Assembly (NCBI RefSeq): GCF_032854445.1
Contig: NC_088304.1
Coordinates: 36,350,108 to 36,414,107 of the forward strand
Origin: Liolophura sinensis
Taxonomy: Eukaryota; Mollusca; Polyplacophora; Chitonida; Chitonidae
Direction of reading: 5' to 3'
Length of the DNA stretch: 64,000 nt
Position numbers and translations under genes: made by a program. The notes beneath the pieces are model-generated. The model worked only from the letters and a program-made list of their open reading frames with translations. It did not search any database and had not been told where the DNA came from. This document shows positions 8,330 through 63,261 of the stretch, in pieces; positions within the stretch are counted from its first letter, which is position 1, and the number at the start of each line of letters is the position of its first letter.

Positions 8330-8421
8330 TCAGCTGTTGGGTTTCTGCTTGTCCTTTTGATGTTGTTTCTGGTTTTCCAGAAATCTCTTGAAAGATTCAT
8401 ACTCCTTCTTTTCATCGGGAT
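8330..8421 (-). CDS. GPN1: GPN1 exon 12 (C-terminus)
   Basis: Begins after tgtttacag and encodes [20 protein letters not shown] then [10 protein letters not shown], ending in TGA at 8330-8332. It corresponds to the conserved C-terminal helix (human ...FQNFMQESMAQYW). The phase agrees with exon 11 across a 3.1-kb intron made mostly of minisatellite. Confidence 0.88.
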
Positions 8422-25412: not shown

Positions 25413-25496
25413 ATGGAAAACTACCACGTATTGGAGCTTATAGGAGAGGGCTCGTTTGGGAAGGTGTATAAAGGCAGGAAGAAATACACGGGACAG
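25413..25496 (+). CDS. STK36: STK36 exon 1 (glycine-rich loop)
   Basis: 28 codons starting [20 protein letters not shown]. This is the kinase N-terminus almost exactly as in the family, which fixes the start. Context is GTTGTCATGG. Donor CAG|gtgaac, phase 0. Confidence 0.96.
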
Positions 25497-28400: not shown

Positions 28401-31400
28401 TCAGTTCCCATGCCTGCATGTGTTACTACATATAAGTGACTGTAACACACAAATTAGTGCATGAACGTCTGTTAAAAGTAACAAATGTATTAAAAAATGA
28501 CACTGTTGTCATGCTATGCAGGAATATATTGGATGTTTATATACAGAGAAATCAGGTCTTCATATATTTCTTGGGCCTGACTGAAGAAAATGTGAATGCA
28601 ATTGCTCTACTGAAGATCCATGTTGAATGAGTCAAGTAATAAAGCACCACCAAGTTACCTCCCTTGTGGTCACTGACTCCTTTAAAAATTGCGATATTAG
28701 GATTAAGGCGTGGTTAGATGGGACCTCAGAAAATGGCTAGTGGCAAGTTTCTGAGTTAAAGCCACATTAGCTAGTTGATAACCTAGCTTTAAGGCAGATA
28801 TTAATTTTGTAAATTTATTTGGAAAGCTCAGGATGATATTTTTTTAATCCATTCGAAGGTAATTTCCTAATTCTGGTCCTGGTCCTGGTCCTAATTAAAT
28901 GTAACAGACAACTTCTTGAGCTGAAAACATCAAATTAATTGACGATCTCTCTACATTTCTATGACTCTCAAAGGCTGATATCATGTTTTATTACATTCTG
29001 TTGCCTACAAAATATTTGTCACTGTTGTCATATAACCTACATACTGCATTCTGTAATATGCGAGGTCCTACTTCTCTTAGTTTCACACCTCAGAAACTAA
29101 TCTTGTGTAACAAGGGATATCATCCAGAGCAGGCCTGTTAGTTGGTAGGGCAAACTGGGAAGATAACCTATTAAAATGGCATCTGAAGCCAGCAGTTGTG
29201 GTTACGCATATGTTTATTACTGTCATTAACAGTATCCTCTCAATGGTCAAACTGTTCCACATGTTTTAGGGCTGGGGGATGTTTCCTGTATGAGTTGTAC
29301 ATGGTCACTCACCAATTCTGCACTCAAAGCATCTTCTCATTGACCACACCGTTGTACCACATGTTTTAGGGCTGTGGGGTGTATCCTGTATGAGTGGTAC
29401 ACCGGCACTCCCCCATTCTACACTCAGAACATCTTTCCACTGACCACATACATGTACATGTAGCTGTACCACATGTTTTAGGGCTGCGGGGTGTATCCTG
29501 TATGAGTGGTACACCGGCACTCCCCCATTCTATGCTCAGAACATCTTTCCACTGACCACATACATGTACATGTAGCTGTACCACATGTTTTAGGGCTGTG
29601 GGGTGTATCCTGTGTGAGTGGTACACCGGCACTTCCCCATTCTATGCTCAGAACATCTTTCCACTGACCACATTGTTGTACCACATGTTTTAGGGCTGTG
29701 GGGTGTATCCTGTGTGAGTGGTACACCGGCACTTCCCCATTCTATGCTCAGAACATCTTTCCACTGACCACATACATGTACATGTAGCTGTACCACATGT
29801 TTTAGGACTGTGGGGTGTATCCTGTGTGAGTGGTACACCGGCACTCCCCCATTCTACACTCAGAACATCTTTCCACTGACCACATACATGTACATGTAGC
29901 TGTACCACATGTTTTAGGGCTGTGGGGTGTATCTTGTGTGAGTGGTACACCGGCACTCCCCCATTCTATGCTCAGAACATCTTTCCACTGACCACATACA
30001 TGTACATGTAGCTGTACCACATGTTTTAGGGCTGTGGGGTGTGTCCTGTATGAGTGGTACACCGGCACTGCCCCATTCTACACTCAGAACATCTTTCCAC
30101 TGACCACATACATGTACATGTAGCTGTACCACATGTTATAGGGCTGTGGGGTGTATCCTGTGTGAGTGGTACACCGGCACTCCCCCATTCTATGCTCAGA
30201 ACATCTTTCCACTGACCACATACATGTACATGTAGCTGTACCACATGTTTTAGGGCTGTGGGGTGTATCCTGTGTGAGTGGTACACCGGCACTCCCCCAT
30301 TCTACACTCAGAACATCTTTCCACTGACCACATACATGTACATGTAGCTGTACCACTTGTTTTAGGCCTGTGGGGTGTATCCTGTGTGAGTGGTACACCG
30401 GCACTCCCCCATTCTACACTCAGAACATCTTTCCACTGACCACATACATGTACATGTAGCTGTACCACATGTTATAGGGCTGTGGGGTGTATCCTGTGTG
30501 AGTGGTACACCGGCACTCCCCCATTCTACGCTCAGAACATCTTTCCACTGACCACATACATGTACATGTAGCTGTACCACATGTTTTAGGCCTGTGGGGT
30601 GTATCCTGTGTGAGTGGTACACCGGCACTCCCCCATTCTATGCTCAGAACATCTTTCCACTGACCACATACATGTACATGTAGCTGTACCACATGTTTAG
30701 GGCTGTGGGGTGTATCCTGTGTGAGTGGTACACCGGCACTTCCCCATTCTATGCTCAGAACATCTTTCCACTGACCACATACATGTACATGTAGCTGTAC
30801 CACATGTTTTAGGGCTGTGGGGTGTGTCCTGTATGAGTGGTACACCGGCACTGCCCCATTCTACACTCAGAACATGTTCTCACTAACCATACAGCTGTAC
30901 CACATGTTTAGGGGCTGTGGGGTGTATCCTGTATGAGTGGTACACCGGCACTCCTCCATTCTATGCTCAGAACATCTTTTCACTAACCACACAGCTATAC
31001 CACTTGTTTCAGGGCTGTGGGGTGTACACTGTATGAGTTGTACTCTGGCACTGCCCCATTCTATGCTCAAAGCATCTTCTCACTGATCACTCTGTTTTTA
31101 CCAAATGTTTCAGGGCTGTGCGGTGTATCCTGTATGAGTTGTTCACTGGCACCCCACCCCCATTCTACACTCCTCCATTCTACGCTCAAAGCTTCTTCTT
31201 ACTGACCACACTGTTTTTATCACGTTTCAGGGCTGTGGGGTGTAACCTGTATGAGTTGTACATGTGCACACTCTCATTCTACACCAACAGCATCTTCTCT
31301 CTGACCACACTGTTGTACCACATGTTTCAGGGCTGTGGGGTGTATCCTGTATGAGTTGAACACGGGCACTCCCCCATTCTACACTCTCCCCATTCTACAC

Positions 31401-34400
31401 TCCCCCCATTCTACACTACCCCATTGTACACTAACAACATCTTCTCACTGATCAAACTGTTGTACCACATGTTCCAGGGCTGTGGGCTGTATCCTGTATG
31501 AGTTGTACACGGGCACTCCCCCATTCTACACTAACAGCATCTTCCAGCTGGTTAGTCTGATCATCAAGGACCCTGTTAAGTGGCCTAAGACGATGACTCC
31601 TGCCTTTAAGGATTTCCTACAGGGTCTCCTCACCAAGGACAACAGGCACAGACTGGCATGGCCTGACCTTCTCCACCATCCTTTTGTATCAGAAGGTGTC
31701 AAAGGTTAGTGAGGCAAGATTGAGGTACTGAGTTACACTTATGGGGCTGTTTCACAAAGCAGCCGTAACGTTACACTGGTCGGAAGTATATGTACCAAGG
31801 TTGCGTATTAATATGCAAAGTTGTTGTGATGAGAACCTGCGGATGGTCGTGGGTTTCCCCCGGGCTCTGCCCGGTTTCCTCCCACCATAATGCTGGCCGC
31901 CGTTGTATAAGTGAAATATTCTTTAGTTCGGCATAAAACACCAGTCAGATAAATAAATAAATAAATGTTGTGATGGCATGTACGCTGGCATAACATTATG
32001 ACGCCTTTGAGGAAGACGCCCCAGTTTTCTAATTTGATATACAGCTGTTATCAGCTTTAATTTCCATGCACGTCTGTGAAGGGTGATGCTACACAAGGAA
32101 TATATCACCTTAATATTTCAATTCCATTGTGAGTATTGGGCAAAATGCCATTCAGATAAATAAATGTATTTGGATTGTGTTTTGGACACGATTCCCAGAA
32201 CCAAATCCAGGTTTTTTGCTTCTTTAGATGTAACTCTAAGTCAGAATTTCTGTCAGGTACAAGTTTGACTAACTCACTATCCAAATAAGGAAATGTCAGT
32301 CGTTTAGGCAGGGAAATGTAAAGTACAGTATGTACTAGGATGATGGGCCATGGTTTACTGTGGAGGTTCTTGTGATCTCCATTAAGCCACCAACAGCTGT
32401 AATTTTAAAAAATATTTAAAAATTCCTGAATTTTGCATTGAACACCAAGAAATAAATGAAAACAGGTAAGCCGATGAGAATGTGGTCACGTTAATACATG
32501 TATTGGAGTGAGATGGGAAGTTTTGTTGGGTGTTTACTGTGTATTTTTGCAAAAATTATATTGAAATACACCTTTGTGGGGAAGTGCTGAGGCATAGGAC
32601 TGTATCCAGTCAGACAGTTTCCTTCACTTCCACCCTGATGAAAGGATATGTGAAAAGAAATGCTAAAACAAAGATTATTGTTATTTGGGAAATTAACAAA
32701 ATTACACAAAAATTTTTGAATTTTTGTAATTTATGTCTCAAAATTACACCTGTATAAATTTATTTGTTGGAGAAATATTTTCTATTAGTTATCGAAAGTC
32801 TTCACAGATGATATGAACAGTAATCTGAATGGCTTTATTGCGTGACTAGCTTAGCATCCTCTTTTCATACACCCTCACCACTAGACTCACATTTGTCCAT
32901 TTTTGTGGTTGTCATGGTAACTTGATAGCCATTTTACTTATATATACTATATACATACATGTAGGTATGATTTTGTCTCTGGGCTATAACTCCAACCCTT
33001 TTTTGCATAGACTTTAATTTTTGGTGGATATGTAGATACATATATGACGATGTGTCGCGACTCACAATTGTCCATTAGGGCTATAACCCTAACTGGTGTT
33101 TCATGTACAGTTTTAATATTTGATGGATACGTACATACACAGATGACGATGTGTCGCAACTCACAGTTGTCCATTAGGGCTATAACCCTAACTGGTGTTT
33201 TATGTACAGTTTTAATATTTGGTGGATACATAAATACACAGATGACGATGTGTCATGACTCACAGTTGTCCATTAGGGCTATAACCCTAACTGGTGTTTT
33301 ATGTACAGTTTTAATATTTGGTGGATACATAAATACACAGATGATGATGTGTCGCGACTCACAATTGTCCATTAGGGCTATGACCTTAACTGGTGTTTTA
33401 TGTACAGTTTTAATATTTGGTGGATACATACAGACACAGATGACGATGTGTCACGATTCACATTTGTCTATTAGGGCTATGACTCTAACTGGTGTTTTAT
33501 ATACAGTTTTAATATTTGGTGGATACATACAGACACAGATGACGATGTGTCACGACTCACATTTGTCTATTAGGGCTATAACCCTAACTGGTGTTTTATG
33601 TACAGTTTTAATACTTGATGGATACATACAGACACAGATGACGATGTGTCGTGACTCACAATTGTCCATTAGGGCTATAACCCTAACTGGTGTTTCATGT
33701 ACAGTTTTAATATTTGATGGATACGTACATACACAGATGACGATGTGTCGCAACTCACAGTTGTCCATTAGGGCTATAGCCCTAACTGGTGTTTTATGTA
33801 CAGTTTTAATATTTGGTGGATACATAAATACACAGATGATGATGTGTCGCGACTCACAATTGTCCATTAGGGCTATGACCCTAACTGGTGTTTTATGTAC
33901 AGTTTTAATATTTGGTGGATACATACAGACACAGATGACGATGTGTCACGACTCACAGTTGTCCATTAGGGCTATAACCCTAACTGGTGTTTTATATACA
34001 GTTTTAATACTTGATGGATACATACAGACACAGATGACGATGTGTCGTGACTCACAGTTGTCCATTAGGGCTATAACCCTAACTGGTGTTTTATGTACAG
34101 TTTTAATATTTGGTGGATACATAAATACACAGATGATGATGTGTCGTGACTCACAATTGTCCATTAGGGCTATGACCCTAACTGGTGTTTTATGTACAGT
34201 TTTAATATTTGGTGGATACATACAGACACAGATGACGATGTGTCACGACTCACATTTGTCTATTAGGGCTATGACTCTAACTGGTGTTTTATGTACAGTT
34301 TTAATATTTGGTGGATACATACATACACAGATGACGATGTGTCACGACTCACATTTGTCTATTAGGCCTATAACCCTAACTGGTGTTTTATATACAGTTT

Positions 34401-46400: not shown

Positions 46401-49400
46401 ATCCTTAGGTTCAGACTAGAATGAATGATTATGGCTTAACGCCACATCGGCAATATTTCAGCCATAATCGTGGCACATGGTTCAGACTAGAATATTTCAG
46501 CCATATCGTGGCGATGGTTCAGACTAGAATATTTCAGCCATATCGTGGCGATGGTTCAGACTAGAATATTTCAGCCATATCGTGGCGATGGTTCAGACTA
46601 GAATATTTCAGCCATATCGTGGCGATGGTTCAGACTAAATATTTCAGCCATATCGTGGCGATGGTTCAGACTAGAAGCGTGCCACTCATCAGATGAATGT
46701 ATTAAGGTATGAATAAAGCCTCTAGGGCCATTTAACCCATATATTAAGTGAAAACTTCTTGTGTATGGTGTAATTTAGAACAGCCCTGAACAACAATCAA
46801 AACAACAATCAAATAATGTATAGTATTATTTGATTGTTGTTTAGAGCTGTTCTCAAGAAGTTAATAATTATTAAGTTAATAATTAGTAAGGTGAGTTTTA
46901 TAGATGGAGGAAACCACTGACTGAAATCCCAGACTGCAGTCAATCACTTATGTGACCACAGCCTAGCAAGTGATGAGAGTGGAACAATGGAAAAATTCCC
47001 TGTCCAAGGATTGCTCCTGCACTTAATGCACCTCACCACTGAACCACACCTCACCACTGATCCAAACCTCACCACTGAGCCACACCTCACCACTGAACCA
47101 CACCTCACCACTGAGCCACACCTCGCCACTGAGCCACACCTCACCACTGAATCACACCTCACCACTGAACCACACCTCACCACTGAGCCAAACCTCACCA
47201 CTGAACCACACCTCACCACTGAGCCACACCTCACCACTGAACCACACCTCTCTCCCTCCACTGGCTATAGTGTACACATTCAACCCTGTATGTTTTGCAT
47301 ATTTTCTTTCAAGGGACCGTCCACATAATTTGTGTGCCATTGTGTTGTTTTGATTTACGCAACAAGATTATTTGAAATAGAACTTTAGTTTTTATAACAG
47401 AGCAAGCCAAAAGTACTCTTTTAATGCAGCAAGTGAAAATAAAAGTGGAAAATAACAACACTTGTCACAGCTGCACCTTGAATGCAAAGACTCTGCCTGT
47501 CTTGGATGTTTGGGTGAAGGAGAGAGCAAGAAAATGTGCAACCATTGCCTTGCCTAAATATAATATTATGTGATGAAAAACCATATTTCACTTCTGTATT
47601 TTCATAACACATGGTTTACTTTCCTTTTTAGGGATTTACCTCCCTTGATGGAAAGTACTTGTCATTGATTTCAGTATTAAAGCATATGGGACTATGGAGA
47701 GTATTGTCGTTCACTTAGTCATCTTCCTTTTCCACTGTTCGTAGCAACCCTGGTGTCAGCAGATTCTCATTGACCTGGTGATCGCTGTCAATGCTTACTT
47801 TGCCAGTGAGATCAGCTGGACACAGCGTGTGGACAAACACTGGTAAGAGTCTCTCACAATAAGACATGATGAGAAATATTCAAAAATGGTGTACTACAGG
47901 GCAAAAATCTGTGTGGTAAACCATGGTTTTAATCTTCAGTTTTTGTCAATGAACACTGTCACAGTTTCGCCTGAAAACAAGGGCCATTTAAAGTTTCAGT
48001 ACTAGTTTGCATTTTGGCTGGTGTCTACATGTAATATTTGGTGATATTATAATTATATGTAGTATGATTGGGTCTGCGTGCATGGAATCTGTGACTTATT
48101 GATTTCATCGCTCTTTTAACACCCTACTCTAGAATTCTTCTCATACTGGTATACTTTTATATATATGTGCTCAGTTTTAGGGGTAAAGGAAATCTAAGTG
48201 CCTGGTTTAAACCACTGACCATTGCCACATTACTGACAAACTTTCTTTCATGTGACGTGTGTGTTCGTGTGCAGATATGCACAACAAATATTTGATTGTG
48301 TCATATGATCACCATCGACCACTTATTGTCACCAAGGCCCCATGAACAGTGTGAGCAGGAAAATGCACAAATCTGTCCATTTTCTGGGATTTTTGTGAAC
48401 CCATGAAATTGGCCGACTAAAATCTAATTTAAATAGGTGCATAAAATGCGCTGGAAGTTGCACTTTAATAAGTGAATATGTTGACAATTTGGGACAATGT
48501 ACAGTGGGGATGGCTGGAGTTTCACCAGTTTCCTCCTACCACAATGCTGGTCACTGTTATATAAATGAAATATTCTTGAATATGGCGTAAAACAGCAATC
48601 AAATAAGAAAATAAATGTCTACATACCTGTACCTGTGTTTTTGCAGCTCTGATGTTTACCTGGGTGCATGTGTGGAGTTCATAAGCCTGTTGCCACAGCT
48701 GTTACTACAGAAGGTGGATGTGGATATCAGACTGAGAGAGCAAACTCTATTGGTAATGGGTAATCATGAGACGATTACTAAGTGCATGTGTACTATACAA
48801 GCTAGGTTAATAGTTTTCTCCCATATACTCTATAGCAAGCCACTGGCCTACTAGTGGTTTGGCTGTAACTTTGTTGTGGAATGATTGTAGAATGTTCAGT
48901 GGTGTCTGGTCACCATATATAAATGTGGTTATGATATCATCCGTGATCCCAAACCGCGCTAAAACTGTTATCAGTGTTAGATATTCATGTGGTTCATTTC
49001 GTCATTTACTTCAAACCATTATGTTATTGGCTTAAACATTGTGAAATACTTCAGTGCTAAAACTTCAGTGGGGCCTCCGTAGCTCAGTCGGTTAGCGTGC
49101 TAGCGCAGCGTAATGACCCAGGAGCCTCTCACCAATGCGGTCGCTGTGAGTTCAAGTCCAGCTCATGCTGGCTTCCTCTTCAGCCATAAGTGGGAAGGTC
49201 TGCCAGCAACCTGTGGATTGTCGTGGGTTTCCCCCAGGTTGTGCCCGGTTTCCACCCACCATAATGCTGGCCGCCGTCGTATAAGTGAAATATTCTTGAG
49301 TACGGCGTAAAACACCAGTCAAATAAATAAATAAATAAATAAAACTTCAGTAGTAGCTTGTGTAATGGAATTTTGTTTATTTGATCAGAACAAAACATGC

Positions 49401-52400: not shown

Positions 52401-55400
52401 GCGTTAAGCCATAGTCATTCATTCATTCAAAAGAGTGCTGAAAACAGATGTAAATGGCCCTGGCCATTTTTGGCTGTTTTGTTTGGTAGTTCAATAAATT
52501 AGTGTTTCCTCTGGAATTCTTAAAATGGAAAATGCCATGTTAGGCCAACCAGAAACACGATTTCGCGTCACTCTGTTCCCAGTGTTAAAGGTAAATGGGC
52601 GTTAAGGTGATGTATGTGGAAGCAGCTGCATTCTCAGATTATAGAGATAACTCATGCCTGATTTATTCAAATTGATAACGTGGCAGCACTTTGTTTCAGT
52701 GTCTGCGACTTTGCTTGGCTATGTAACATAATAAAGACAAAAAGTTCTGCCTTTTAAACTTCATGTGGTTTACTTTACGGATGCATATAAACGTTTTACC
52801 TGGTGTTTTCTTTCTATTAAGTAATCCGTGACTGTATGTTCGTCCACACAGATAGTGTATTCCTGCTGTCAGATGTCCAGTACTCTGTGTGCCTACATCG
52901 CTGACCATGACAAACACACAGAGACTCTGCTCGACATTCTACTGGGCAAGGTATGAGACTCCTAATTTATACATACATTCTACCTAAATGATAGTACTAT
53001 GAAGTCAGTAATGTTATAGCCTTTACACTGTATATACCCTGCATTAAATACACGAACACGAAGGTTATATCAAGAGTTTTCACTTGGTTTAATACTGGTT
53101 GTGTTTGTAGGATGTTTACAGTTGTTGGAAAGGCTGGTGTCGTCAGCTTTTGTGGACCAATTCAAGAGGAAATATCATATGATGATGAATTACGTGATAG
53201 GTCATGCTAGACTGACTGCAGTGTTTCTACACTACAGATAACACCCTATGTTGATGGACTGTTTCGGTGGCCTTAGAGTATTCGCCTCGAAGTCAGGAGA
53301 TCCTGGGATCAAACCTGAGTTGTGTCATACCAAAGACTTTAAAAATGGTTCTTGCTGCTGCCTCGCTTGGCGCTCAACAATGTTAAAGAGGTTAGAGCAA
53401 GGAAGCATGACTGGTTGGCCCGGCATTAGTATATTGTGACTGGGTGGTTTGTCATGTCTGGCATCTTTGGCATGATATTTCAGTGTCTGCATCACTTTGG
53501 CAGCATGGACTCACCACATGAAGACACATTATGTGTACACTGCACACACACCTGATGACTCCTCGTCATCATATGACTTGACGAATTGTTAAGTGCCAAA
53601 TTAAACATTTGAGTTGATTTGAGTTGAGTTGAGTTGATTTGAGTTGTGGTTTATGCCATACTCAAGAATATTTCACTTACTGTATATGCCTTATATGACG
53701 GGAGGAAACCAGGCACTGCCTGGGGGAAACCCACGACCATCTGTAGGTTGCTGGCACACCTTTTCACTTACGGCTGGAGAGGAAGTTTGCATGAGCTGGA
53801 CTTGAAATCGCAGAGACCTCATTGGCAAGAGGCTCCTGGGTCATACATACATGTCATATGTCAGACATGGAGGTGAACTCTGTGATTGTGACTGTATTAC
53901 TGGTTGTCGCCTTTCAGGTGATGTTGTGAGGCATGGAAGTGAACTCTGTGATTGTGACTGTATTACTGGTTGTCGCCTTTCAGGTGATGGTGTCAGACAT
54001 GGAAGTGAACTCTGTGATTGTGACTGTATTACTGGTTGTCGCCTTTCAGTTGATGGTGTCAGACATGGAGGTGAACTCTGTGATTGTGACTGTATTACTG
54101 GTTGTCGCCTTTCAGGTGATGTTGTCAGGCATGGAAGTGAACTCTGTGATTGTGACTGTATTACTGGTTGTCGTGTTTCAGGTGATGGTGTCAGACATGG
54201 AAGTGAAATCTGTGATTGTGACTGTATTACTGGTTGTCGTGTTTCAGGTGATGGTGTCAGACATGGAAGTGAACTCTGTGATTGTGACTGTATTACTGGT
54301 TGTCGTGTTTCATGTGATGTTGTCAGGCATGGAGGTGAACTCTGTGATTGTGACTGTATTACTGGTTGTTGCCTTTCAGGTGATGGTTTCAGACATGGAA
54401 GTGAACTCTGTGATTGTGACTGTATTACTTGTTGTCGTGTTTCATGTGATGTTGTCAGGCATGGAAGTGAACTCTGTGATTGTGACTGTATTACTGGTTG
54501 TCGCCTTTCAGGTGATGGTGTCAGACATGGAAGTGAACTCTGTGATTGTGACTGTATTACTGGTTGTCGTGTTTCATGTGATGTTGTCAGGCATGGAAGT
54601 GAACTCTGTGATTGTGACTGTATTACTGGTTGTCGTGTTTCATGTGATGTTGTCAGGCCTGGAAGCGAACTCTGTGATTGTGACTGTATTACTGGTTGTC
54701 GTGTTTCATGTGATGTTGTCAGGCATGGAAGCGAACTCTGTGATTGTGACTGTATTACTGGTTGTCGTGTTTCATGTGATGTTGTCAGGCATGGAGGTGA
54801 ACTCTGTGATTGTGACTGTATTACTGGTTGTCGCCTTTCAGGTGATGGTGTCAGACATGGAAGTGAACTCTGTGATTGTGACTGTATTACTGGTTGTTGT
54901 GTTTCATGTGATGTTGTCAGGCATGGAAGCGAACTCTGTGATTGTGACTGTATTACTGGTTGTCGTGTTTCATGTGATGTTGTCAGACATGGAGGTGAAC
55001 TCTGTGATTGTGACTGTATTACTGGTTGTCGCCTTTCAGGTGATGGTGTCAGACATGGAAGTGAACTCTGTGATTGTGACTGTATTACTGGTTGTCGTGT
55101 TTCATGTGATGTTGTCAGGCATGGAAGCGAACTCTGTGATTGTGACTGTATTACTGGTTGTCGTGTTTCATGTGATGTTGTCAGGCATGGAAGTGAACTC
55201 TGTGATTGTGACTGTATTACTGGTTGTCGCCTTTCAGGTGATGGTGTCAGACATGGAAGTGAACTCTGTGATTGTGACTGTATTACTTGTTGTCGTGTTT
55301 CATGTGATGTTGTCAGGCATGGAAGTGAACTCTGTGATTGTGACTGTATTACTGGTTGTCGCCTTTCAGGTGATGGTGTCAGACATGGAAGTGAACTCTG

Positions 55401-58400
55401 TGATTGTGACTGTATTACTTGTTGTCGTGTTCCAGGTGGTGGTGTCAGACATGGAAGTGAACTCTGTGATTGTGACTGTATTACTGGTTGTTGCTATTAA
55501 GGTGATGTTGTCAGACATGGAAGTGAACTCTGTGATTGTGACTGTATTACTGGTTGTCATGTTTCATGTGATGGTGTCAGACATGGAGGTGAACTCTGTG
55601 ATTGTGACTGTATTACTGGTTGTCGTGTTTCAGGTGATGTTGTCAGACATGGAAGTGAACTCTGTGATTGTGACTGTATTACTGGTTGTCATGTTTCAGG
55701 TGATGGTGTCAGACATGGAGGTGAACTCTGTGATTGTGACTGTATTACTTGTTGTCGTGTTTCAGGTGATGGTGTCAGACATGGAAGTGAACTCTGTGAT
55801 TGTGACTGTATTACTGGTTGTCATGTTTCAGGTGATGGTGTCAGACATGGAGGTGAACTCTGTGATTGTGACTGTATTACTGGTTGTCGTGTTTCATGTG
55901 ATGTTGTCAGGCATGGAGGTAAACTCTGTGATTGTGACTGTATTACTGGTTGTCATGTTTCAGGTGATGGTGTCAGACATGGAAGTGAACTCTGTGATTG
56001 TGACTGTATTACTGGTTGTCATGTTTCATGTGGTGGTGTCAGACATGGAGGTGAACTCTGTGATTGTGACTGTATTACTGGTAGTCATGTTTCAGGTGAT
56101 GGTGTCAGACATGGAAGTGAACTCTGTGATTGTGACTGTATTACTGGTTGTCATGTTTCAGGTGATGGTGTCAGACATGGAAGTGAACTCTGTGATTGTG
56201 ACTGTATTACTGGTTGTCATGTTTCAGGTGATGGTGTCAGACATGGAAGTGAACTCTGTGATTGTGACTGTATTACTGGTTGTCATGTTTCAGGTGATGG
56301 TGTCAGACATGGAAGTGAACTCTGTGATTGTGACTGTATTACTTGTTGTCGTGTTTCAGGTGATGGTATCAGACATGGAAGTGAACTCTGTGATTGTGAC
56401 TGTATTACTGGTTGTCATGTTTCAGGTGATGGTGTCAGACATGGAGGTGAACTCTGTGATTGTGACTGTATTACTGGTTGTCGTGTTTCATGTGATGTTG
56501 TCAGGCATGGAGGTGAACTCTGTGATTGTGACTGTATTACTGGTTGTTGCCTTTCAGGTGATGGTGTCAGACATGGAAGTGAACTCTGTGATTGTGACTG
56601 TATTACTGGTTGTCATGTTTCAGGTGATGGTGTCAGACATGGAAGTGAACTCTGTGATTGTGACTGTATTACTGGTTGTCATGTTTCAGGTGATGGTGTC
56701 AGACACGGAGGTGAACTCTGTGATTGTGACTGTATTACTGGTTGTCATGTTTCAGGTGATGGTGTCAGACATGGAGGTGAACTCTGTGATTGTGACTGTA
56801 TTACTGGTTGTCATGTTTCAGGTGATGGTGTCAGACATGGAAGTGAACTCCGTGATTGAGATCACACTACATATACTGAGCACATTAGTTATTCAGCTAC
56901 AGAGGATACCTGCTGTGTGAGTATATGGACTGTCCAGACAATCAGTAAATATCATCACAGTGGTCCAGCAGGGTCTATAGATGTCAGACAAAATGCTTAC
57001 TTGTATAACCAATAGGCTGAGTTGGCATCTCAGTAGTTTCGCCAATTCACGCAGGTTTGGGCAAGACAGGTGTCGGCTCATCGGCGCTGTTAGCATCTCT
57101 CGCAAAATCATGGCTTTTAGCTGCTTCAGCTTGCGAGAGGCCCCACTCTGTCTTTTCCAAATCTTTGTAAACTAGAGACAGTTTTAACATGCCGACTAGA
57201 TTTATATCAAGGACATTTAAATACATGTACGGGGGTCTGTCATAAGAACACAGAGTTCAGACTTGTCTACTCTACAGTCAACTATAATAATTCTGTGTTC
57301 ATTTACCCCAGCTCAGGTAAATATAACAATACTTGGTTGCAATTTGAACTCACCGATTAAGTAACAGGTACAAAACTTCCTAAGTTCATTTCACCAAATT
57401 CTGGAGTCAACCTTGTGATCAGTTCACTAATTTTGGGGTACAGTAAACAATACTTTTCAACAACTTAGACCTTTTCCTTGTGGTTTTAGTGAACAGAATA
57501 CTTCAATAACGTTGAAAAAATAATTTTGTCCTTGACAGCCACCAGGTGTGTTCTGTGTGGTAGTTGACTCTTTATGGTAGTTGACCCTTTATTTTAGTTA
57601 TTTGCCACAATTAAACATGTAAAGATATTGTTTAAGGACTACAGTTACATGTGTTGTGAATATTCTTGAGTATAGCATAAAACACCAATCAAATAAATAA
57701 ATAAATAAATACATGTGTTGTGATTTTCAAATTTGGCCTATTTTTGTTTGTTTTAGCTGGTTTCAGAAGCGTTAGTGTCCTGCTTCCTGATTTTATATGA
57801 TATCATTTTCATATACTTGTATGTTCTTGTCAGAATAGGACTGAAATACTGGCAGTATGCCAAGGAATTCTGATCATTCATTCAACAACCAAATAACAAT
57901 TAATTAAATGAGTCAAAAATCACTTAAATAAACCACTGAACCTCTCATGAACTCAATCTCTTTGCCTAAAGACTAGTGTACGGATTTATTTATTTCTATG
58001 GTGTTTTATGTTGTACTCAAAAATAGTTTTGTACGCCGGCGGCCAGCATCATGGTGGAGGGAATAGCGGCAATCATCACATCTTCCTCCTTACAACCTGA
58101 GAGCCTAAGGGCTAGTGGTCTGAACTGAAGCAATTGTAAGCTGGCGGCCAGCATTATGGTGGAGGGGATAGCGGCAACCATCACACTATCCTCCTTACAA
58201 CCGAAGAGCCTAAGGGCTAGTGGTCTGACCTGAGCAATTGTACGCTGGTAGCCAGCATTATGGTGGAGGGGATAGCGGCAACCATCACACTTTCCTCCTT
58301 ACAGCAGGAGAGCCTAAGAGCTAGTGGTCTGAACTGAAGCAATTGTACGCCGGCGGCCAGCATTATGGTGGAGGGGATAGCGGCGACCATCACACCTTCC

Positions 58401-61400: not shown

Positions 61401-63261
61401 AATGTATTCAGCTGAAGTTTTGCTTTCATGTGTCAGCCACAGCTGAACTCTTTGGTTGCCTTGCTACAAAGTCCAAGTTGACTACATATTTAATGTGGCT
61501 TTTACTACAATATGTTGTATTTGTATGATATGTATTGTATACCTGAATTGTGAGGTAATGTAAGACATGTTCATGCAAACCACGGTGAAGCATTGGGCTA
61601 TTAAAGTTTAGCACAGCTTCTAAGAATAATCCTGTGTTTTTCATCCCCCCTCCCCTAGTGTGATGTACCTGTGGCCCAGATGTACATACAGACTGGGATA
61701 TGGAGCACCATGTGGCAGAGGATTGCCCAGGCCCTACACATTCGTAACGCAGAGATGGACATGCCCGTGGAGGACATGGAGACGGAAGGGGAGAGTACTG
61801 TGCCATTTGAACCCCCAGACTGGGCCCTCATGTCCCCACAAGGGCTGATGGCTGTCCTGCAGATGTCAGTCTCTGTCTTCTCTAAGGTAAGGTAAAACCA
61901 TGTGAGCAAAATTGTGTTCCAAATGTGTGATTTTTTACTGTATCATGTTTTAGGAGTGATTACTTTTTCTTTTTGTTTTTTGAGCCAGTGACAATAAACA
62001 TAAATATGTTGACCCTTGTTTAGTAAATGGAACATATTTTGGTAATTGTCTCTTCAAATCAATGTTTGCTGAAGGATTTTAATCCTCTAAACTTGAGAAG
62101 TCATTTGTATCCAGAAACATCTCTGATAATTTGACTTACAACAGACTTTATCTGCGGTATACATGTAAGCTTCCCATTCTTATTACTTTTATTTTTGCTT
62201 TTTTTTTTTTTTTGTACAGATGGTTTTAGATGCTGTATTTACATGTATACTTTTTATGATAAATCCTACCTTTGCATACCTGGTGTTTATAGGCTCACTA
62301 TTAATTACAGATCACATGTATGGTATTGTGTGGAACTTTGTGGTGTCGCCACAATATCTACAGAACTACTTCATGTAGATTTTCACATTTCTTAACTTTT
62401 TTCTTAGAGATTTGGAGCAGCAGCCCATATCAAACCAGTTGCGTCTCTTTAACATTAATGCATCATTGTTTGATATATTGGTTTTTCACTGGTAGTGAAG
62501 GATTGCATCACTTAAGAGGATGAAACAGCCTAATGGCACTGTCTCCCTTTAGCCCGACTCCTGTATGTGAGGGAGGACTACAGGTTTGCACCCTGTCAGT
62601 CCAGCTGTCTGTCACACTAGTTAACCCTGTCATGTGTAATATTGAAGTTCTAAAACTGATGTAAGTGTTTAGTCCACCAAATGAATTTGTGATGTTAATG
62701 CTTAGTCCATCAAATTAATTTGTGAACTGATGTTAATGTTTAGTTCATCATTTTTAATTTGTGAACTGATGTTAATGTTTAGTCCATCAAATTAATTTGT
62801 GAACTGATGTTAATGCTTAGTCCATCAAATTAATTTGTTAACTAATGCTAGCATTTAGTCCATCAAATTAATTTGTGGTCTGATTTTATCATTTAGTCCA
62901 TTAACTTAATTTGTGATCTGATGTTAGTGTTAAGTCCATCAAATTAATTTGTGAACTGATGTTAATGTTTAGTCCATCAAATTAATTTGTGAACTGATGT
63001 TAATGCTTAGTCCATCAAATTAATTTGTTAACTAATGCTAGCATTTAGTCCATCAAATTAATTTGTGGTCTGATTTTATCATTTAGTCCATTAACTTAAT
63101 TTGTGATCTGATGTTAGTGTTAAGTCTATCAAATTAATTTGTGAACTGATGTTGCAGGAAACATTCCAATGTATTCCCAACCTTGCTGCCGGGGATAGTG
63201 TGGTAATGCTAACATTAGTGCATCTGATGAGAGAGGAGTTTTTGGAGCAGACTGCTAACAG
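25413..63261 (+). CDS. STK36: Serine/threonine kinase 36 (Fused family), 5' part of gene
   Basis: Twenty-three coding exons were placed by GT-AG sites, phase and similarity along the whole of STK36. The kinase domain is complete: GEGSFGKV at residues 11-18, ALKF with catalytic Lys33, HRDMKPQN with Asp125, DFG at 143-145, and [10 protein letters not shown] basic linker, an acidic [11 protein letters not shown] segment and long alpha-helical repeats follow. The family is known as Fused in insect Hedgehog signalling and for ciliary central-pair assembly in vertebrates; which role holds here is inference. The gene is cut by the window edge: roughly the last 270 residues of the human protein have no counterpart here. 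Joins E8-E9-E10 and E11-E12 are out of phase as read. Confidence 0.93.
25855..25995 (+). CDS. STK36: STK36 exon 2 (catalytic Lys, helix C)
   Basis: 47 codons beginning [20 protein letters not shown]. It carries the ATP-binding Lys33 and the helix C segment [14 protein letters not shown]. Ends ETDKE|gtgagt in phase 0. Confidence 0.96.
26429..26506 (+). CDS. STK36: STK36 exon 3 (hinge)
   Basis: 26 codons, [20 protein letters not shown] then [21 protein letters not shown] is diagnostic of Fused-family kinases. Phase 0 at both ends. Confidence 0.96.
26840..27019 (+). CDS. STK36: STK36 exon 4 (catalytic loop and DFG)
   Basis: 60 codons with [18 protein letters not shown] and [13 protein letters not shown]. 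All catalytic residues are present, so the enzyme should be active. Acceptor gagcacag, donor gtacta. Confidence 0.97.
27186..27342 (-). mobile_element. SINE family B, 5'-truncated, minus strand
   Basis: TTTATTTATTTGATTGGTGT, then the ACACCGTACTCAAGCATAG and GGCCAGCATTATGGTGGAGG blocks of the family. It ends near CAGACCTCCCCACGTACGAC, well short of the tRNA-like head. It lies in STK36 intron 5. Confidence 0.8.
27762..27829 (+). CDS. STK36: STK36 exon 5 (activation segment end)
   Basis: [20 protein letters not shown] then DL plus two bases of a Trp codon. It holds the SPE (APE-type) motif. Donor gtaaga, phase 2. The next genuine exon is 3.65 kb away, beyond the 112-bp array. Confidence 0.95.
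27880..28170 (+). mobile_element. SINE family C copy, decayed
   Basis: Shares ACCAGAGACTTTAAAAACGG, TTTAGAGCAAGGAAACAGGA and CTCAAGAAGACACA, in the same order, with copies at about 42870-43205 and 53248-53620. The head is missing. Confidence 0.65.
29270..31477 (+). repeat. 112-bp tandem array derived from STK36 exon 6
   Basis: About 20 units. Each starts with a tttag or ttcag acceptor, then about 67 bases matching the first part of exon 6 (GGCTGTGGGGTGTATCCTGT ... CCCCCATTCTA), then about 45 bases of intron with CATACATGTACATGTAGC. The unit is 112 bp in the middle; the flanking copies at 29270-29400 and 30860-31470 are more diverged. The genuine exon at 31478 closes the array. In the exon 5 reading frame the central units read [17 protein letters not shown] and stop after about 30 codons at a TAG. 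Confidence 0.95.
31478..31704 (+). CDS. STK36: STK36 exon 6 (C-lobe of kinase)
   Basis: Completes W184, then [20 protein letters not shown] and [17 protein letters not shown], ending [10 protein letters not shown]. It is the only member of a run of about 20 related copies that continues into the rest of the C-lobe and has a donor (G|gttagt). It is therefore taken as the genuine exon. Length 227 nt, phase 2 in, phase 1 out. Confidence 0.95.
31832..31965 (+). mobile_element. SINE family B, 5'-truncated, with target duplication
   Basis: The 3' half of family B (CTGCGGATGGTCGTGGGTTT to AAATAAATAAATAAA), flanked by TGTTGTGATG at 31822-31831 and 31966-31975. Loss of the 5' end with an intact target duplication fits reverse transcription that stopped early. 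It lies just downstream of exon 6. Confidence 0.85.
33005..38105 (+). repeat. 99-bp minisatellite, about 51 units, in STK36 intron 6
   Basis: The unit is 99 bp, with ACGATGTGTCGCGACTCACA, TTAGGGCTATAACCCTAA and TGGTGTTTTATGTACAG. Since 99 is divisible by three and the unit lacks stops, a plus-strand frame of 1767 codons (33044-38347) appears, as do minus-strand ones. A higher-order duplication is visible: blocks at 33946, 34342, 34936 and 35332 recur at a constant offset of 1683 bp (17 units). The flanks at 32890-33030 and 38108-38400 hold longer relatives of the unit. Confidence 0.96.
38781..39037 (+). mobile_element. SINE family B with target duplication
   Basis: Family B from GAGGCCTCTGTGGCAGAAG, a decayed tRNA-like head, to TCAGATAAATGAATAGG. 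It is flanked by AAACCATTTG at 38771-38780 and 39038-39047. It lies about 60 bases upstream of exon 7. Confidence 0.85.
39098..39261 (+). CDS. STK36: STK36 exon 7 (linker)
   Basis: Begins [20 protein letters not shown] and ends [18 protein letters not shown]. It fits the human linker ...SRILTQAYKRMAEEA. The phase agrees with exon 6 across a 7.4-kb intron that is mostly 99-bp repeat. Donor AAG|gtaaga. Confidence 0.88.
39490..40720 (+). repeat. Minisatellite of 22- and 32-bp subunits, split by a SINE
   Basis: Alternating subunits of about 22 bp (GAATATGGATAAATCAA + GTGTA) and about 32 bp (the same plus CCCTAGATAACCCTA). The array is interrupted by the family A SINE at 39907-40271. It lies in STK36 intron 7. 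Confidence 0.9.
39907..40271 (-). mobile_element. tRNA-derived SINE, family A, full length
   Basis: On the minus strand the element begins with a tRNA-like head: GGCCCAGATAGCACAGTTGG, TAGAGCG (box A, 40241-40260 region) and GGATCAATCC (box B, 40208-40217). The same body as the copy at 1397-1730 follows. ATCAACCCCGGA (39895-39906) and ATCAACCCTGGA (40272-40283) look like target duplications, although the host array itself repeats ATCAACCCT. Confidence 0.85.
41340..41470 (+). CDS. STK36: STK36 exon 8 (linker, low conservation)
   Basis: Acceptor ttgctgcag, then [20 protein letters not shown] ... [10 protein letters not shown] and donor AG|gtgagc. Both splice sites are good, but the protein is Gly/Pro-rich and not recognisable on its own. 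Its exit phase (2) does not fit the frame of the next exon. An 18-nt candidate micro-exon at 42232-42249 does not repair this. Confidence 0.65.
41480..41995 (+). repeat. About 20-bp tandem repeat with SINE fragment inside
   Basis: Units of about 20 bp, CATTACACTGTAAACTAA, in two runs separated by a piece of SINE family B at about 41640-41742 (GGGAAGGTCTGCCAACAACG to AATGCTGGCCACTGTCATG). It lies directly after the exon 8 donor. Confidence 0.88.
42513..42736 (+). mobile_element. SINE family B with tRNA-like head
   Basis: GGGCCTCTGTAGCTCAGTCG, GTTAGCG (box A type) and GTGAGTTCAAGTC (box B type), then the family body and AATCAAATCAAATTAAAT tail. TTTGTCTTTTAG before and TTTGTCTTTAGG after are probable target duplications. 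Confidence 0.88.
42870..43205 (+). mobile_element. SINE family C copy
   Basis: Contains ATACCAAAGACTTTAAAAAT, TTTAGAGCAAGGAAACAGGA and ATGACTCCTCGTCGTCATAT, shared with 53248-53620. A short direct repeat, TGCCAAAGACTGCTCAGGTG-like, lies at its left end (42846 and 42901). Confidence 0.7.
43280..43429 (+). CDS. STK36: STK36 exon 9 (probable; frame broken)
   Basis: After ccacccctag, one frame reads [20 protein letters not shown] then [19 protein letters not shown] and meets TAA at 43400-43402. A second frame then gives METVKLEN (43404 onward), which resembles the human ...DLENEEPDSDNEW just before the next conserved exon. One base in the AAAA at about 43394-43397 would reconcile the two frames. 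The end (CAG|gttagg) runs straight into a SINE-B tail at about 43430. The region is coding-like but not intact as read. Confidence 0.55.
43430..43470 (+). mobile_element. SINE-B 3' tail abutting STK36 exon 9
   Basis: TTAGGCGTAAAACACTAATC then AAATCAATAAATC is the end of family B. It starts at the putative donor of exon 9, so the insertion may have supplied or replaced the splice site. Confidence 0.6.
44350..44456 (+). mobile_element. SINE family B 3' fragment
   Basis: GGCCACCATTTTAGAAGTGA, AATATTCTTGATTACAGCAT and a (AAAT)n tail. No head. It lies in STK36 intron 9. Confidence 0.7.
44692..44912 (+). CDS. STK36: STK36 exon 10
   Basis: Starts [20 protein letters not shown] and continues through FRKKLMTRM to [20 protein letters not shown]. 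It aligns with human EPDSDNEWQHLLETTE ... ILEGASHILPAFRVL. Phase 0 in, TG|gtgagt phase 2 out. Confidence 0.92.
45124..45320 (+). mobile_element. SINE family B, diverged
   Basis: From a GTTTCCGTGGTTAGCGCGCT head remnant through GGGAAGGTCTGGCCAACAAC to an (AAAT)n tail. CTAAATGAC occurs on both sides (45114-45122 and about 45325-45333) and is a likely target duplication. Confidence 0.78.
46119..46219 (+). CDS. STK36: STK36 exon 11
   Basis: Completes Cys and reads [20 protein letters not shown] then [27 protein letters not shown] fits human GLPGLLLSLLRH. Best donor is G|gtcagg (phase 1), which does not match the phase-0 start of exon 12. The frame beyond the donor (GQES) also resembles the human sequence, so the true donor may be elsewhere. 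Confidence 0.82.
46425..46680 (+). repeat. 37-bp tandem array from a dispersed repeat
   Basis: It begins with GAATGATTATGGCTTAACGC and CACATCGGCAATATTTCAGC, as at 4205-4265. About six copies of ATATTTCAGCCATATCGTGG then CGATGGTTCAGACTAGA follow. The array seems to have grown from the 3' part of that element. It lies in STK36 intron 11. Confidence 0.88.
47023..47250. repeat. 18-bp minisatellite, about 12 copies
   Basis: Unit CACCTCACCACTGAACCA, 18 bp, with GAGCCA/GAACCA/GATCCA variants. Both strands stay open (TEPHLT on plus, VVRCGS on minus) because 18 is divisible by three. It lies in STK36 intron 11. Confidence 0.93.
47745..47842 (+). CDS. STK36: STK36 exon 12
   Basis: After gttcgtag, reads [20 protein letters not shown] then [12 protein letters not shown], aligning with human SWYGTFLQDLMAVIQAYFA. 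Donor TG|gtaaga, phase 2, correct for exon 13. Confidence 0.86.
48500..48613 (+). mobile_element. SINE family B 3' fragment
   Basis: CCAGTTTCCTCCTACCACAA, TGCTGGTCACTGTTATATAA and GAATATGGCGTAAAACAGCA with a short A-rich tail. It ends about 30 bases before exon 13. Confidence 0.75.
48647..48752 (+). CDS. STK36: STK36 exon 13
   Basis: Reads [20 protein letters not shown] then [15 protein letters not shown]; a helical stretch matching LFLDLLGKLLAQ of human. Acceptor tttttgcag, donor gtaatg, phase 0 out. Confidence 0.87.
49070..49340 (+). mobile_element. SINE family B, full length and recent-looking
   Basis: The best copy here. Head GGGGCCTCCGTAGCTCAGTC with GGTTAGCGTGC (box A type), GTGAGTTCAAGTCC (box B type, about 49147-49160), the body TAATGCTGGCCGCCGTCGTA, and (AAAT)n. 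Perfect target duplication AAAACTTCAGT at 49059-49069 and 49341-49351. The head would be a pol III promoter in this class; it is not a tRNA gene. Confidence 0.93.
49532..49682 (+). CDS. STK36: STK36 exon 14
   Basis: Reads [20 protein letters not shown] then [20 protein letters not shown]. It matches human [20 protein letters not shown]. Donor G|gtttgt, phase 1. Confidence 0.9.
50599..50729 (+). CDS. STK36: STK36 exon 15
   Basis: Reads [20 protein letters not shown] then [20 protein letters not shown]. Conservation is low, but the GAxAALtxlPL pattern fits the human ISSALAAICTAPVG region and both phases are right. Donor AAG|gtggga. Confidence 0.83.
50905..51125 (+). repeat. Dispersed repeat, copy 2
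   Basis: Matches 24965-25190 in order and strand (TATTCTGAAGGCATTATTCT, TCTCCAAAATCAAA, GAGGAATTAGGGT). It lies in STK36 intron 15. Confidence 0.75.
51317..51424 (+). CDS. STK36: STK36 exon 16
   Basis: 36 codons, [20 protein letters not shown] then [16 protein letters not shown]. Acceptor gtgtttcag, donor gttcgt; phase 0 at both ends. Confidence 0.85.
51950..52435. repeat. About 40-bp minisatellite, 12 units
   Basis: Units TTGGCGTTAAGCCATAATCA + TTCATTTATTCAAAAGAGGGG. The TTAAGCCATAATCATTCATT core is the reverse complement of the GAATGATTATGGCTTAA end seen at 46425 and 4205, and occurs again at about 19096. It lies in STK36 intron 16. Confidence 0.92.
52852..52950 (+). CDS. STK36: STK36 exon 17
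   Basis: 33 codons, [20 protein letters not shown] then [25 protein letters not shown] aligns with human VLYSCCLVSEGLC. Donor AAG|gtatga, phase 0. Confidence 0.92.
53248..53620 (+). mobile_element. SINE family C with tRNA-like head
   Basis: GTTTCGGTGGCCTTAGAGTA, TTCGCCTCGAAGTC and GGGATCAAACC (box B type, 53305-53315) form a tRNA-like head. The body shares blocks with 27880-28170 and 42870-43205. The end is GTTAAGTGCCAAATTAAAC. It lies in STK36 intron 17. Confidence 0.72.
53645..53845 (-). mobile_element. SINE family B, minus strand
   Basis: GTGGTTTATGCCATACTCAA, GAATATTTCACTTACTG, GGGGGAAACCCACGACCATC and AGAGGCTCCTGGGTCAT, in family order. The outer head is missing. The 66-bp array begins right after it. 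Confidence 0.82.
53860..56821 (+). repeat. 66-bp tandem array derived from STK36 exon 18
   Basis: About 45 units of 66 bp: GTGATGGTGTCAGACATGGA, AGTGAACTCTGTGATTGTGA, CTGTATTACTGGTTGTC and (A/G)TGTTTCAG. Most units end in TTTCAG|GTGATG, a copy of the exon 18 acceptor; others have TTTCATGTG and lack it. One frame stays open from 53933 through exon 18 to 56920, repeating [14 protein letters not shown] and a short polar part. A second frame (53851-55500) is Cys-rich. Neither is a separate gene. Confidence 0.96.
56822..56916 (+). CDS. STK36: STK36 exon 18 (last member of 66-bp array)
   Basis: Begins [20 protein letters not shown] and continues [11 protein letters not shown]. The second half fits human [20 protein letters not shown]. 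The first half ([12 protein letters not shown]) is the repeat unit of the preceding array, and human VKVVDWEESTEV shows it is the ancestral exon start. Donor GT|gtgagt, phase 2, correct for exon 19. Confidence 0.88.
57655..57715 (+). mobile_element. SINE family B tail
   Basis: GAATATTCTTGAGTATAGCA then TAAAACACCAATCAAATAAA and an (AAAT)n tail. Only about 60 bases remain. ACATGTGTTGTGA recurs on its two sides (about 57646 and 57711), a likely target duplication. Confidence 0.72.
57985..58655 (-). repeat. About 105-bp array grown from a SINE-B fragment
   Basis: A minus-strand SINE-B end at 57985-58060 (TTTATTTCTATGGTGTTTTA ... CGGCGGCCAGCATCATGGTG) runs into about six units. Each holds GCCGGCGGCCAGCATTATGG, GATAGCGGCAACCATCACAC and GAGCCTAAGGGCTAGTGGTC. 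The first part of the unit is SINE body. It lies in STK36 intron 18. Confidence 0.9.
58736..58799 (+). CDS. STK36: STK36 exon 19
   Basis: After tgtttacag, reads [20 protein letters not shown] then T, matching human KLGSDVATLFTHSHVVS. 64 nt, donor gtaagt, phase 0. Confidence 0.88.
59243..59353 (+). CDS. STK36: STK36 exon 20
   Basis: 37 codons, [20 protein letters not shown] then [17 protein letters not shown], in line with human VSAAACLLGQLGQQG ... LQPMEW. Donor gtagga. A long G run begins 47 bases further on. Confidence 0.88.
59401..59447 (+). repeat. G-rich run (G18 and further G tracts)
   Basis: Eighteen G in a row, then G5, G3, G7 and G6 tracts separated by one to three bases, on the sense strand of STK36 intron 20, 47 bases after the donor. 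It could form G-quadruplex structure in DNA or in the pre-mRNA. Run length is error-prone in sequencing. Confidence 0.85.
59789..59863 (+). CDS. STK36: STK36 exon 21
   Basis: 25 codons, [20 protein letters not shown] then ELLAQ, matching human GFYDGLLILLLQLLTEQ. Acceptor ggtgaccag, donor gtattc. Confidence 0.9.
60805..61405. mobile_element. Foldback/MITE-like element, about 170-bp inverted ends
   Basis: The left end, 60805-60975 (AAAGGAGAAGAAAACATAAA ... GTGGGTATTTGGGACCAACT), is matched by the reverse complement of 61240-61405 (ATTAAAGGTGGAGAAAACAT ... GGGTATTTGGGACCACCTTT). The middle is AT-rich with no coding frame. It lies in STK36 intron 21. Likely a non-autonomous DNA transposon; TTAA-like flanks are suggestive only. 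Confidence 0.78.
61659..61886 (+). CDS. STK36: STK36 exon 22
   Basis: 76 codons starting [20 protein letters not shown] and ending [20 protein letters not shown] plus SVFSK. It is close to human [23 protein letters not shown]. Acceptor tcccctag, donor gtaagg. Confidence 0.95.
62640..63150 (+). repeat. 38-bp minisatellite with 190-bp higher-order repeat
   Basis: Unit TTAGTCCATCAAATTAATTT plus GTGAACTGATGTTAATGC, 38 bp. A block of five variant units recurs at an offset of 190 bp, for example TTAACTAATGCTAGC at about 62838 and 63028. The last unit runs to the exon 23 acceptor. Confidence 0.92.
63158..63261 (+). CDS. STK36: STK36 exon 23 (last in window)
   Basis: [20 protein letters not shown] then [14 protein letters not shown], matching human [20 protein letters not shown]. 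Donor AG|gtttgc in phase 2, so the gene continues to the right. The acceptor directly follows a unit of the 38-bp array. Confidence 0.87.

What the first reader, a model, noticed from the sequence alone, without database searches (positions are those of the whole stretch)
53860..56920. STK36 exon 18 has multiplied into about 45 in-frame, acceptor-bearing copies
Each 66-bp unit reproduces the exon 18 acceptor (TTTCAG) and its first ~60 bases, and the genuine exon is the last unit. 66 is divisible by three, exon 17 ends in phase 0, and the frame is open from 53933 through exon 18. Any upstream acceptor could therefore be used without a frameshift, adding n x 22 residues with the hydrophobic core [10 protein letters not shown]. 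This would be a length-variable, possibly membrane-seeking insert in a Hedgehog/cilia kinase. About half the units have lost the AG (TTTCATG). That the array is transcribed as intron is near certain; that it is translated is inference.
Basis: partly seen in the sequence, partly recalled or inferred. Interest (0 to 1): 0.85.

Follow-up and report, generated by a model that had tools for sequence, protein, structure and literature searches.

The report
Splice-junction minisatellites in a chiton gene
In a kinase gene of a chiton, a short piece of DNA spanning the start of an exon has been copied about 45 times into the neighbouring intron; similar arrays sit at other exon edges in this animal, and most likely the cell ignores the copies and splices to the real exon, which makes them a natural test of how splice sites are chosen.

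Summary
The array is real: 45.5 units of 66 bp at 53859-56858. Each unit is about 38-40 bp of exon start plus 26-28 bp of intron end. 29 of 44 decoy units keep AG, and 28 of those would stay in frame. A translated, length-variable insert is possible but not favoured. Four more exon edges of this gene carry such arrays, as do 8 of 142 exon matches sampled elsewhere. Outside the reported array, 110 of 130 decoys keep AG or GT, yet only 4 of those 110 could be used without frameshift or stop, which points to routine use of the exon-proximal site. Open frames are cheap in arrays whose period is a multiple of three. Placement matches chance (8 seen, 8.0 expected). The assembly matches the chiton Liolophura sinensis. 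The kind is known from amphioxus as 'mirages', where splicing is reported undisturbed (PMC3087553 passages). New within my searches: the mollusc, the frequency, the 45-unit in-frame array, the chance-placement result. Left open: variants are clustered, and a 23-bp stretch of every unit, where a branch point could lie, is invariant. No RNA was examined.

The parts
53859..56858 (+). 66-bp minisatellite spanning the 3' splice junction: 44 full decoy units (53918-56821), a partial first unit, and the start of the genuine exon as last unit; 29 of 44 decoys keep AG
   Evidence: reading frame continuous with E18 and E20
52852..52950 (+). preceding exon (E18 of my model), ends in phase 0 before GTATGA
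56783..56805 (+). last decoy's copy of the 23-bp stretch (-39 to -17 before the next unit's exon start) that is invariant in all 44 decoy units; where a branch point could lie (inference)
   Evidence: run test P 0.0003, 0.0002
29270..31477 (+). second junction array of the gene: units mostly 100-112 bp apart that copy acceptor and the first 55-82 bp of the kinase exon E6; 18 of 19 decoys keep AG, none of the 18 is in frame and open
31478..31704 (+). kinase-domain exon E6 ([19 protein letters not shown]...), source of the array upstream of it
25413..25496 (+). first coding exon of the kinase gene; the gene continues past the window to L003 position 9521, with further junction arrays at L003:4424-5379 (donor side), 6302-7572 (acceptor side) and 8279-8445 (acceptor side, short)

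Best explanation
The feature is a minisatellite born by tandem duplication of a short segment that happened to span an intron-exon junction, then amplified by slippage or unequal exchange. It is the kind called a 'mirage' in amphioxus. Such a duplication leaves a complete exon next to its own junction, so all extra copies lie on the intron side. They stay neutral as long as the spliceosome keeps pairing the exon-proximal acceptor with the exon's donor (exon definition). Shown: geometry, copy number, intact decoy sites, consequences for the frame, recurrence in a sample of the genome, chance-like placement. Inferred: the mode of birth and amplification, and that most transcripts join 52950 to 56822 and remove the array as intron; leakage of some 66-nt extensions is possible.
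For: Copies begin at exon position 1-3 in 20 of 21 hits at E6, 44 of 45 at E19 and 9 of 9 at E30, and end at the exon end in 12 of 13 at E28. In 10 of 10 arrays scanned on both sides, all decoys found lie on the intron side. Intact decoys usable without frameshift or stop: E19 28 of 29; the 12 other arrays together 4 of 110 (E28 2 of 13, L070 2 of 28, the rest 0). Yet 110 of their 130 decoys keep AG or GT (summed), 18 of 19 at the kinase exon, so decoy sites are not purged where use would be harmful. Elsewhere 8 of 142 sampled exon matches have such an array against 8.01 expected from random array placement (95% range 3-13, P 0.58); in this gene 3 of 18 arrays by TRF coordinates against 2.03 (P 0.32). 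4 of 13 periods are multiples of three. Amphioxus mirages are reported not to disturb splicing (PMC3087553 passages; PMC3902484 passage).
Against: No RNA was examined. 13 of 29 intact decoys score at least as high as the genuine acceptor, so site strength does not explain proximal choice. Distinct variants in the units lean weakly to synonymous (10 against 6.35 expected, P 0.06; nonsynonymous 13 against 17.0, P 0.05), the direction expected if the frame mattered. A 23-bp block is invariant, and invariant runs also cover the decoy splice sites of L020 (25 bp, P 0.00005, 6 units) and E28 (20 bp, P 0.02, 13 units); recent spread or conversion could cause this, but so could constraint. AG is kept more often in the exon-proximal half of E19 (18 of 22 against 11 of 22).
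Confidence: 0.85

Rival explanations
1. One reading: upstream acceptors are used regularly, so the protein carries n x 22 hydrophobic residues, variable between transcripts and individuals. (The rivals are not strictly exclusive of each other.)
For: 28 of 29 intact decoys in frame and open; 13 of 29 at least as strong as the real site by a small PWM; weak synonymous lean; in human paralogs repeats at exon-intron boundaries do change splicing (PMC2812944 passages).
Against: The same gene carries intact decoys at other exons that would destroy the protein; 3n periods are not over-represented (4 of 13); open frames are common in 3n arrays; AG lost in 15 of 44; amphioxus precedent reports undisturbed splicing.
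Confidence: 0.09
2. Stepwise or recursive splicing: intact units are an acceptor fused to a donor (CAG|GTGATGGT), i.e. also a 66-nt mini-intron, so the array is removed in pieces or ratcheted, whatever acceptor is tried first.
For: The seam CAGGTGATGGT scores 7.8 as a donor, above 11 of 29 true donors of the gene, at 24 of 45 seams, the genuine one included; the invariant block sits where a branch point could lie; a new intron by duplication across an intron-exon boundary is described in potato (PMC4974935 abstract and passages).
Against: No RNA evidence; 66 nt is short for an animal intron (recalled); the fusion follows simply from this exon beginning with GTG; invariant runs occur at other places in other arrays.
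Confidence: 0.06
3. Assembly artefact: the array is a collapsed or inflated construct.
For: 14x HiFi only, mean read 8.3 kb (PMC11068029 passages).
Against: Reads of that length can span 3 kb; units differ in a structured way, with a lower difference at lag 2 than between neighbours (3.45 against 4.12); arrays of the same kind at 12 other junctions. Reads themselves were not seen.
Confidence: 0.02

Closest known systems
[quoted passage not shown] also PGBD5, troponin C)
   Same: Tandem units spanning the boundary, at 5' or 3' junctions, genuine exon adjoining, many but not all units with AG/GT; units 10-160 bp (abstract and passages of PMC3087553, passage of PMC3902484)
   Different: Here in a mollusc; 45 units against 6 and 3 reported for the two BflGb6 haplotypes; 13 junction arrays found in a small sample; in-frame extension at this one; splicing and length instability not tested here
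Variable internal tandem repeats at exon-intron boundaries of human genes in segmental duplications
   Same: Minisatellite expansion at an exon-intron boundary (PMC2812944 passages)
   Different: There repeats are said to form novel introns in recent paralogs, with units of on average 30 bp repeated 4 times; here a large intronic array in a gene whose preceding exon occurs once in the genome
[quoted passage not shown] potato RdRp; ATP2A1)
   Same: Duplicated segment holds AGGT at the seam; the potato case crosses an intron-exon boundary (PMC4974935 abstract and passages)
   Different: No evidence of a new intron here

Membership tests
mirage (amphioxus-type junction minisatellite) | tandem units that span an intron-exon boundary | tested here: met
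mirage (amphioxus-type junction minisatellite) | both 5' and 3' junctions can be affected in the genome | tested here: met
   8 acceptor-side and 5 donor-side arrays
mirage (amphioxus-type junction minisatellite) | many but not all units keep AG/GT | tested here: met
   29 of 44
mirage (amphioxus-type junction minisatellite) | regular mRNA splicing not disturbed | not testable with these tools
   no RNA data; indirect argument from frames
mirage (amphioxus-type junction minisatellite) | length instability between alleles or somatic cells | not testable with these tools
   one assembled haplotype; the stretch around E18 is found once
intron gain by tandem duplication | duplicated segment contains AGGT | tested here: met
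intron gain by tandem duplication | a new intron is spliced between duplicates | not testable with these tools
   no RNA data
STK36/Fused kinase | N-terminal protein kinase domain and C-terminal HEAT/ARM-like repeats (recalled as the architecture) | tested here: met
   Pkinase 1e-77, HEAT 2e-12
STK36/Fused kinase | orthology to STK36 rather than another kinase with such repeats | tested here: inconclusive

The most novel reading that the evidence does not exclude
In this chiton, junction minisatellites are a genome-wide layer of splice-site decoys in very many genes, and the in-frame ones are functional: here a branch-point-like block is held invariant in all 44 decoy units and many seams are both acceptor and donor, so the array is spliced recursively or yields a graded set of kinase isoforms that differ by 22-residue hydrophobic blocks, with unit number varying between individuals.
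Probability: 0.08. Interest if true: 0.88.

Novelty: new member of a known kind. Interest (0 to 1): 0.52.

Why it matters
If exon-proximal choice holds, this gene puts 29 AG-bearing decoys, 13 of them scoring at least as high as the real site, beside one acceptor, and 13 decoy donors with the same score beside another exon. That is a natural titration of exon definition against site strength. That such arrays occur at the number random placement predicts suggests that mirages need no special mechanism, only many minisatellites and a spliceosome that ignores intron-side copies. The chiton would be a second animal lineage, far from amphioxus, in which to test intron gain by tandem duplication. 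For annotators it warns that homology-based models can place false exons in such arrays: the kinesin profile matched inside one (L072).

Tried and rejected
Considered and rejected: the open frame as evidence of coding (other 3n arrays are open too; 21% by chance); a special attraction of arrays to junctions (placement tests); selection for 3n periods (4 of 13); retrocopies or a second haplotype that would show the spliced form (the stretch around E18 occurs once; the downstream flank gives only partial matches of 70-81% elsewhere); a solved structure to fix the name (none named STK36 among the 60 shown of 2,803). I first took the invariant 23-bp block as a mark of branch-point constraint; invariant runs at other places in L020 and E28 make that less specific. 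Structure prediction was not run: a spliced protein is not a direct translation of the window, and a lone array translation would say little. The original Adh3 mirage paper (PMC117041) is not held; I know it only through two later papers.

Limits: the splice-site PWM rests on 26 acceptors and 29 donors of one gene. Survey exons are profile matches whose ends only approximate exon ends. The kinase sample used 66 of 140 matches (near-complete or intronless matches, this gene and others were left out by hand before any array was seen) and the kinesin sample 77 of 137 (chosen for clustering in genes). One kinesin match lying inside an array was dropped before the placement test, leaving 142. In the placement test of this gene 18 of the 19 merged arrays were used (the short one at 31367-31432, next to E6, was dropped), and the junction arrays E6 and E32 do not count as overlaps because TRF stops short of their exons. 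Decoy counts depend on the identity cut and window, which differ between calls: 62% over 50 bases (and L072 in 57), 70% over 27 bases for L070, 62% over 36 bases for L073 (70% gives 3 intact of 4). E32 (one decoy found, AG lost) and L018 (two found) are undercounted; L070, L072 and L073 were scanned on the intron side only.
Full report
WHAT IS THERE. Tandem Repeats Finder reports 45.5 copies of a 66-bp unit at 53859-56858, 93% matches. In register with the exon start at 56822, 44 full units (53918-56821) precede the genuine one; they differ from their consensus by 1-6 bases. Each unit is the first 38-40 bases of the exon followed by 26-28 bases of intron end with the acceptor. The exon goes on with other sequence, so fewer than half of its 95 bases are copied. 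AG before the unit start is kept in 29 of 44 decoys; the 15 lost ones read AT.

THE GENE. I read 31 exons by eye and joined them in a script. Phases agree except at two places in the middle of the gene, which are unresolved. The gene starts at 25413 and ends in the adjoining DNA at L003 position 9521. The protein has a kinase domain (Pkinase E 1e-77) and C-terminal HEAT-like repeats (E 2e-12). The name STK36 fits that architecture as I recall it but was not tested by a tree; none of the 60 relatives shown, of 2,803 found in solved structures, is called STK36.

NOT ONE ARRAY BUT FIVE IN THIS GENE. Exon-versus-gene blastn found intron-side copies of four exons: E6 (kinase domain; 21 hits, mostly 100-112 bp apart), E19 (45 hits), E28 (13 hits, at its donor end, 66 bp), E30 (9 hits, 128 bp). 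E32 has a short 52-bp array whose unit also spans its acceptor, seen by TRF and by eye and with one decoy in the scan. For E6 the direction is clear: the copied sequence encodes a conserved stretch of the kinase domain, so the exon is the source.

CONTROL FROM OTHER GENES. I took 66 exon-level matches of the kinase profile in 56 stretches (of 140 matches) and 77 of the kinesin profile in 20 stretches (of 137). Junction arrays were found at 5 kinase exons (L018, L020, L030, L038, L052) and 3 kinesin exons (L070, L072, L073): 8 of 142 after dropping one kinesin match that lies inside an array. Arrays cover 5.5% of the kinase stretches, 13.9% of the kinesin stretches and 38.5% of this gene, so this gene is rich in arrays.

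IS IT MORE THAN CHANCE? Placing the 47 sampled arrays at random in their stretches, without covering an exon match and with at most 100 bases of overlap, gives 8.01 junction arrays on average (95% range 3-13) against 8 seen (P 0.58). In this gene 3 of 18 arrays overlap a junction by TRF coordinates against 2.03 expected (P 0.32). So no special attraction to junctions is needed: many minisatellites, with exon interiors protected, give this number.

WOULD THE DECOYS BE READABLE? For each decoy with intact AG or GT I asked whether using it keeps frame and avoids stops. E19: 28 of 29. E28: 2 of 13. L070: 2 of 28. The others 0: E6 0 of 18, E30 0 of 3, L020 0 of 6, L018 0 of 2, L030 0 of 5, L038 0 of 4, L052 0 of 1, L072 0 of 24, L073 0 of 6; E32 has none intact. 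So outside E19, 4 of 110. Periods are 112, 66, 66, 128, 52, 37, 80, 67, 65, 76, 27, 73 and 27; four of 13 are multiples of three. I see no sign of selection for readable arrays. Outside E19, 110 of 130 decoys keep AG or GT; at the kinase exon it is 18 of 19, though using any of the 18 would break the reading frame or meet a stop, and at E28 13 of 13 decoy donors score the same as the real one. E30 is the exception, with 3 of 9. The simplest account is that the exon-proximal site is used and the rest is intron.

THE OPEN FRAME. The array is open for 996 codons in the exon frame, but also 564 and 452 codons in another forward frame and 550 in a reverse frame. Other 3n arrays in the window are open as well, up to 1,778 codons at 33011-38347. 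A shuffled unit of this composition is open in a given frame in 21% of trials. One stop was seen among 24 distinct variants against 0.63 expected.

RESULTS THAT DO NOT FIT EASILY. (a) Synonymous variants are somewhat in excess (10 against 6.35, P 0.06) and nonsynonymous somewhat short (13 against 17.0, P 0.05). (b) Twenty-three consecutive unit positions, -39 to -17 before the exon start, carry no variant in 44 units (P 0.0003 and 0.0002 by random placement of the 24 variants; profile). That block could hold the branch point. But variants are clustered in other arrays too, at other places: L020 has a 25-bp invariant run over its acceptor (P 0.00005, 6 units) and E28 a 20-bp run over its donor (P 0.02, 13 units), while E6, E30 and L070 show nothing notable (P 0.06, 0.24, 0.43). 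Recent spread or conversion between units could cause such runs, and so could constraint on splice signals. (c) 13 of 29 intact decoys score at least as high as the genuine acceptor. (d) The seam CAG|GTGATGGT, at 24 of 45 seams with the genuine one included, scores as a fair donor (7.8, above 11 of 29 true donors), so units could act as mini-introns. (e) AG is kept in 18 of 22 exon-proximal but 11 of 22 exon-distal units.

ORGANISM. The published assembly of the chiton first named Liolophura japonica has 632 scaffolds, longest 96,433,062 bp, N50 37,343,639 bp, and scaffolds of 32,819,725, 31,077,156, 28,395,274, 27,489,247, 25,057,479 and 19,479,325 bp (passages of PMC11068029). These equal contig lengths returned here. 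The total differs slightly (609,464,459 here; 609,495,693 there) and so does one contig (30,099,635 against 30,102,928). The species was corrected to Liolophura sinensis (PMC12441733, whole text).

WHAT IS KNOWN. Tandem repeats spanning exon-intron boundaries are described in amphioxus as 'mirages': in Adh3, in globin genes at 5' and 3' boundaries, and in other genes. Units are 10-160 bp, 6 and 3 units in the two BflGb6 haplotypes, many but not all with AG/GT; the data, RT-PCR among them, are said to suggest that regular splicing is not disturbed, and intron gain is proposed as an outcome (abstract and passages of PMC3087553; passage of PMC3902484). Human repeats at exon-intron boundaries are reported to form introns (passages of PMC2812944), and a duplication across an intron-exon boundary made a potato intron (abstract and passages of PMC4974935). 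In searches of an open-licence library I saw no listed report of such arrays in a mollusc; I opened only the papers named here. One of them, on earthworm metallothionein genes (PMC12783039), mentions exon duplications absent from the transcript and intronic minisatellites, and no junction array in the passages I saw.

VERDICT. The best explanation is a mirage that is removed with the intron. Translation of a few units is possible and would be settled by existing RNA reads. The wider finding, junction arrays at about 1 in 18 sampled exon matches of a chiton, the number that chance placement gives, is more interesting than the single array.

Noticed in passing
window 33013-38125: 51.6 copies of a 99-bp unit, open for 1,778 codons on the gene's strand inside an intron; its two flanks look alike, as if it grew from a dispersed repeat rather than an exon (by eye). 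A good control against reading open arrays as genes.
   Followed up: partly
L072:2288-4360: Kinesin exon with a donor-side array of 73-bp units; inside it lies a second, 129-bp, 100% identical copy of the exon's end, which the kinesin profile takes for a separate exon.
   Followed up: partly
window 62654-63157: A 38-bp array ends four bases before the start of exon E24 (63158), so the array itself supplies the region where that intron's branch point would lie.
   Followed up: no
window 53918-56821, unit positions 28-50; L020 around 1216; L003:4424-5379: Long invariant runs inside the units of three junction arrays: 23 bp upstream of the acceptor here, 25 bp over the acceptor in L020, 20 bp over the donor at E28.
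   Followed up: partly
L003:8279-8468: In the small array before exon E32 the units read TTTCAT where the real junction has TTTCAG, the same G to T loss as in 15 units of the 66-bp array.
   Followed up: no
window 41340-44692 and 46219-47745: Exon phases do not join across these two stretches; one or more small exons or an unusual donor are missing from my gene model.
   Followed up: no
window 47029-47250: 12.3 copies of an 18-bp unit with an open frame of TTEPHL repeats on the gene's strand, probably intronic.
   Followed up: no
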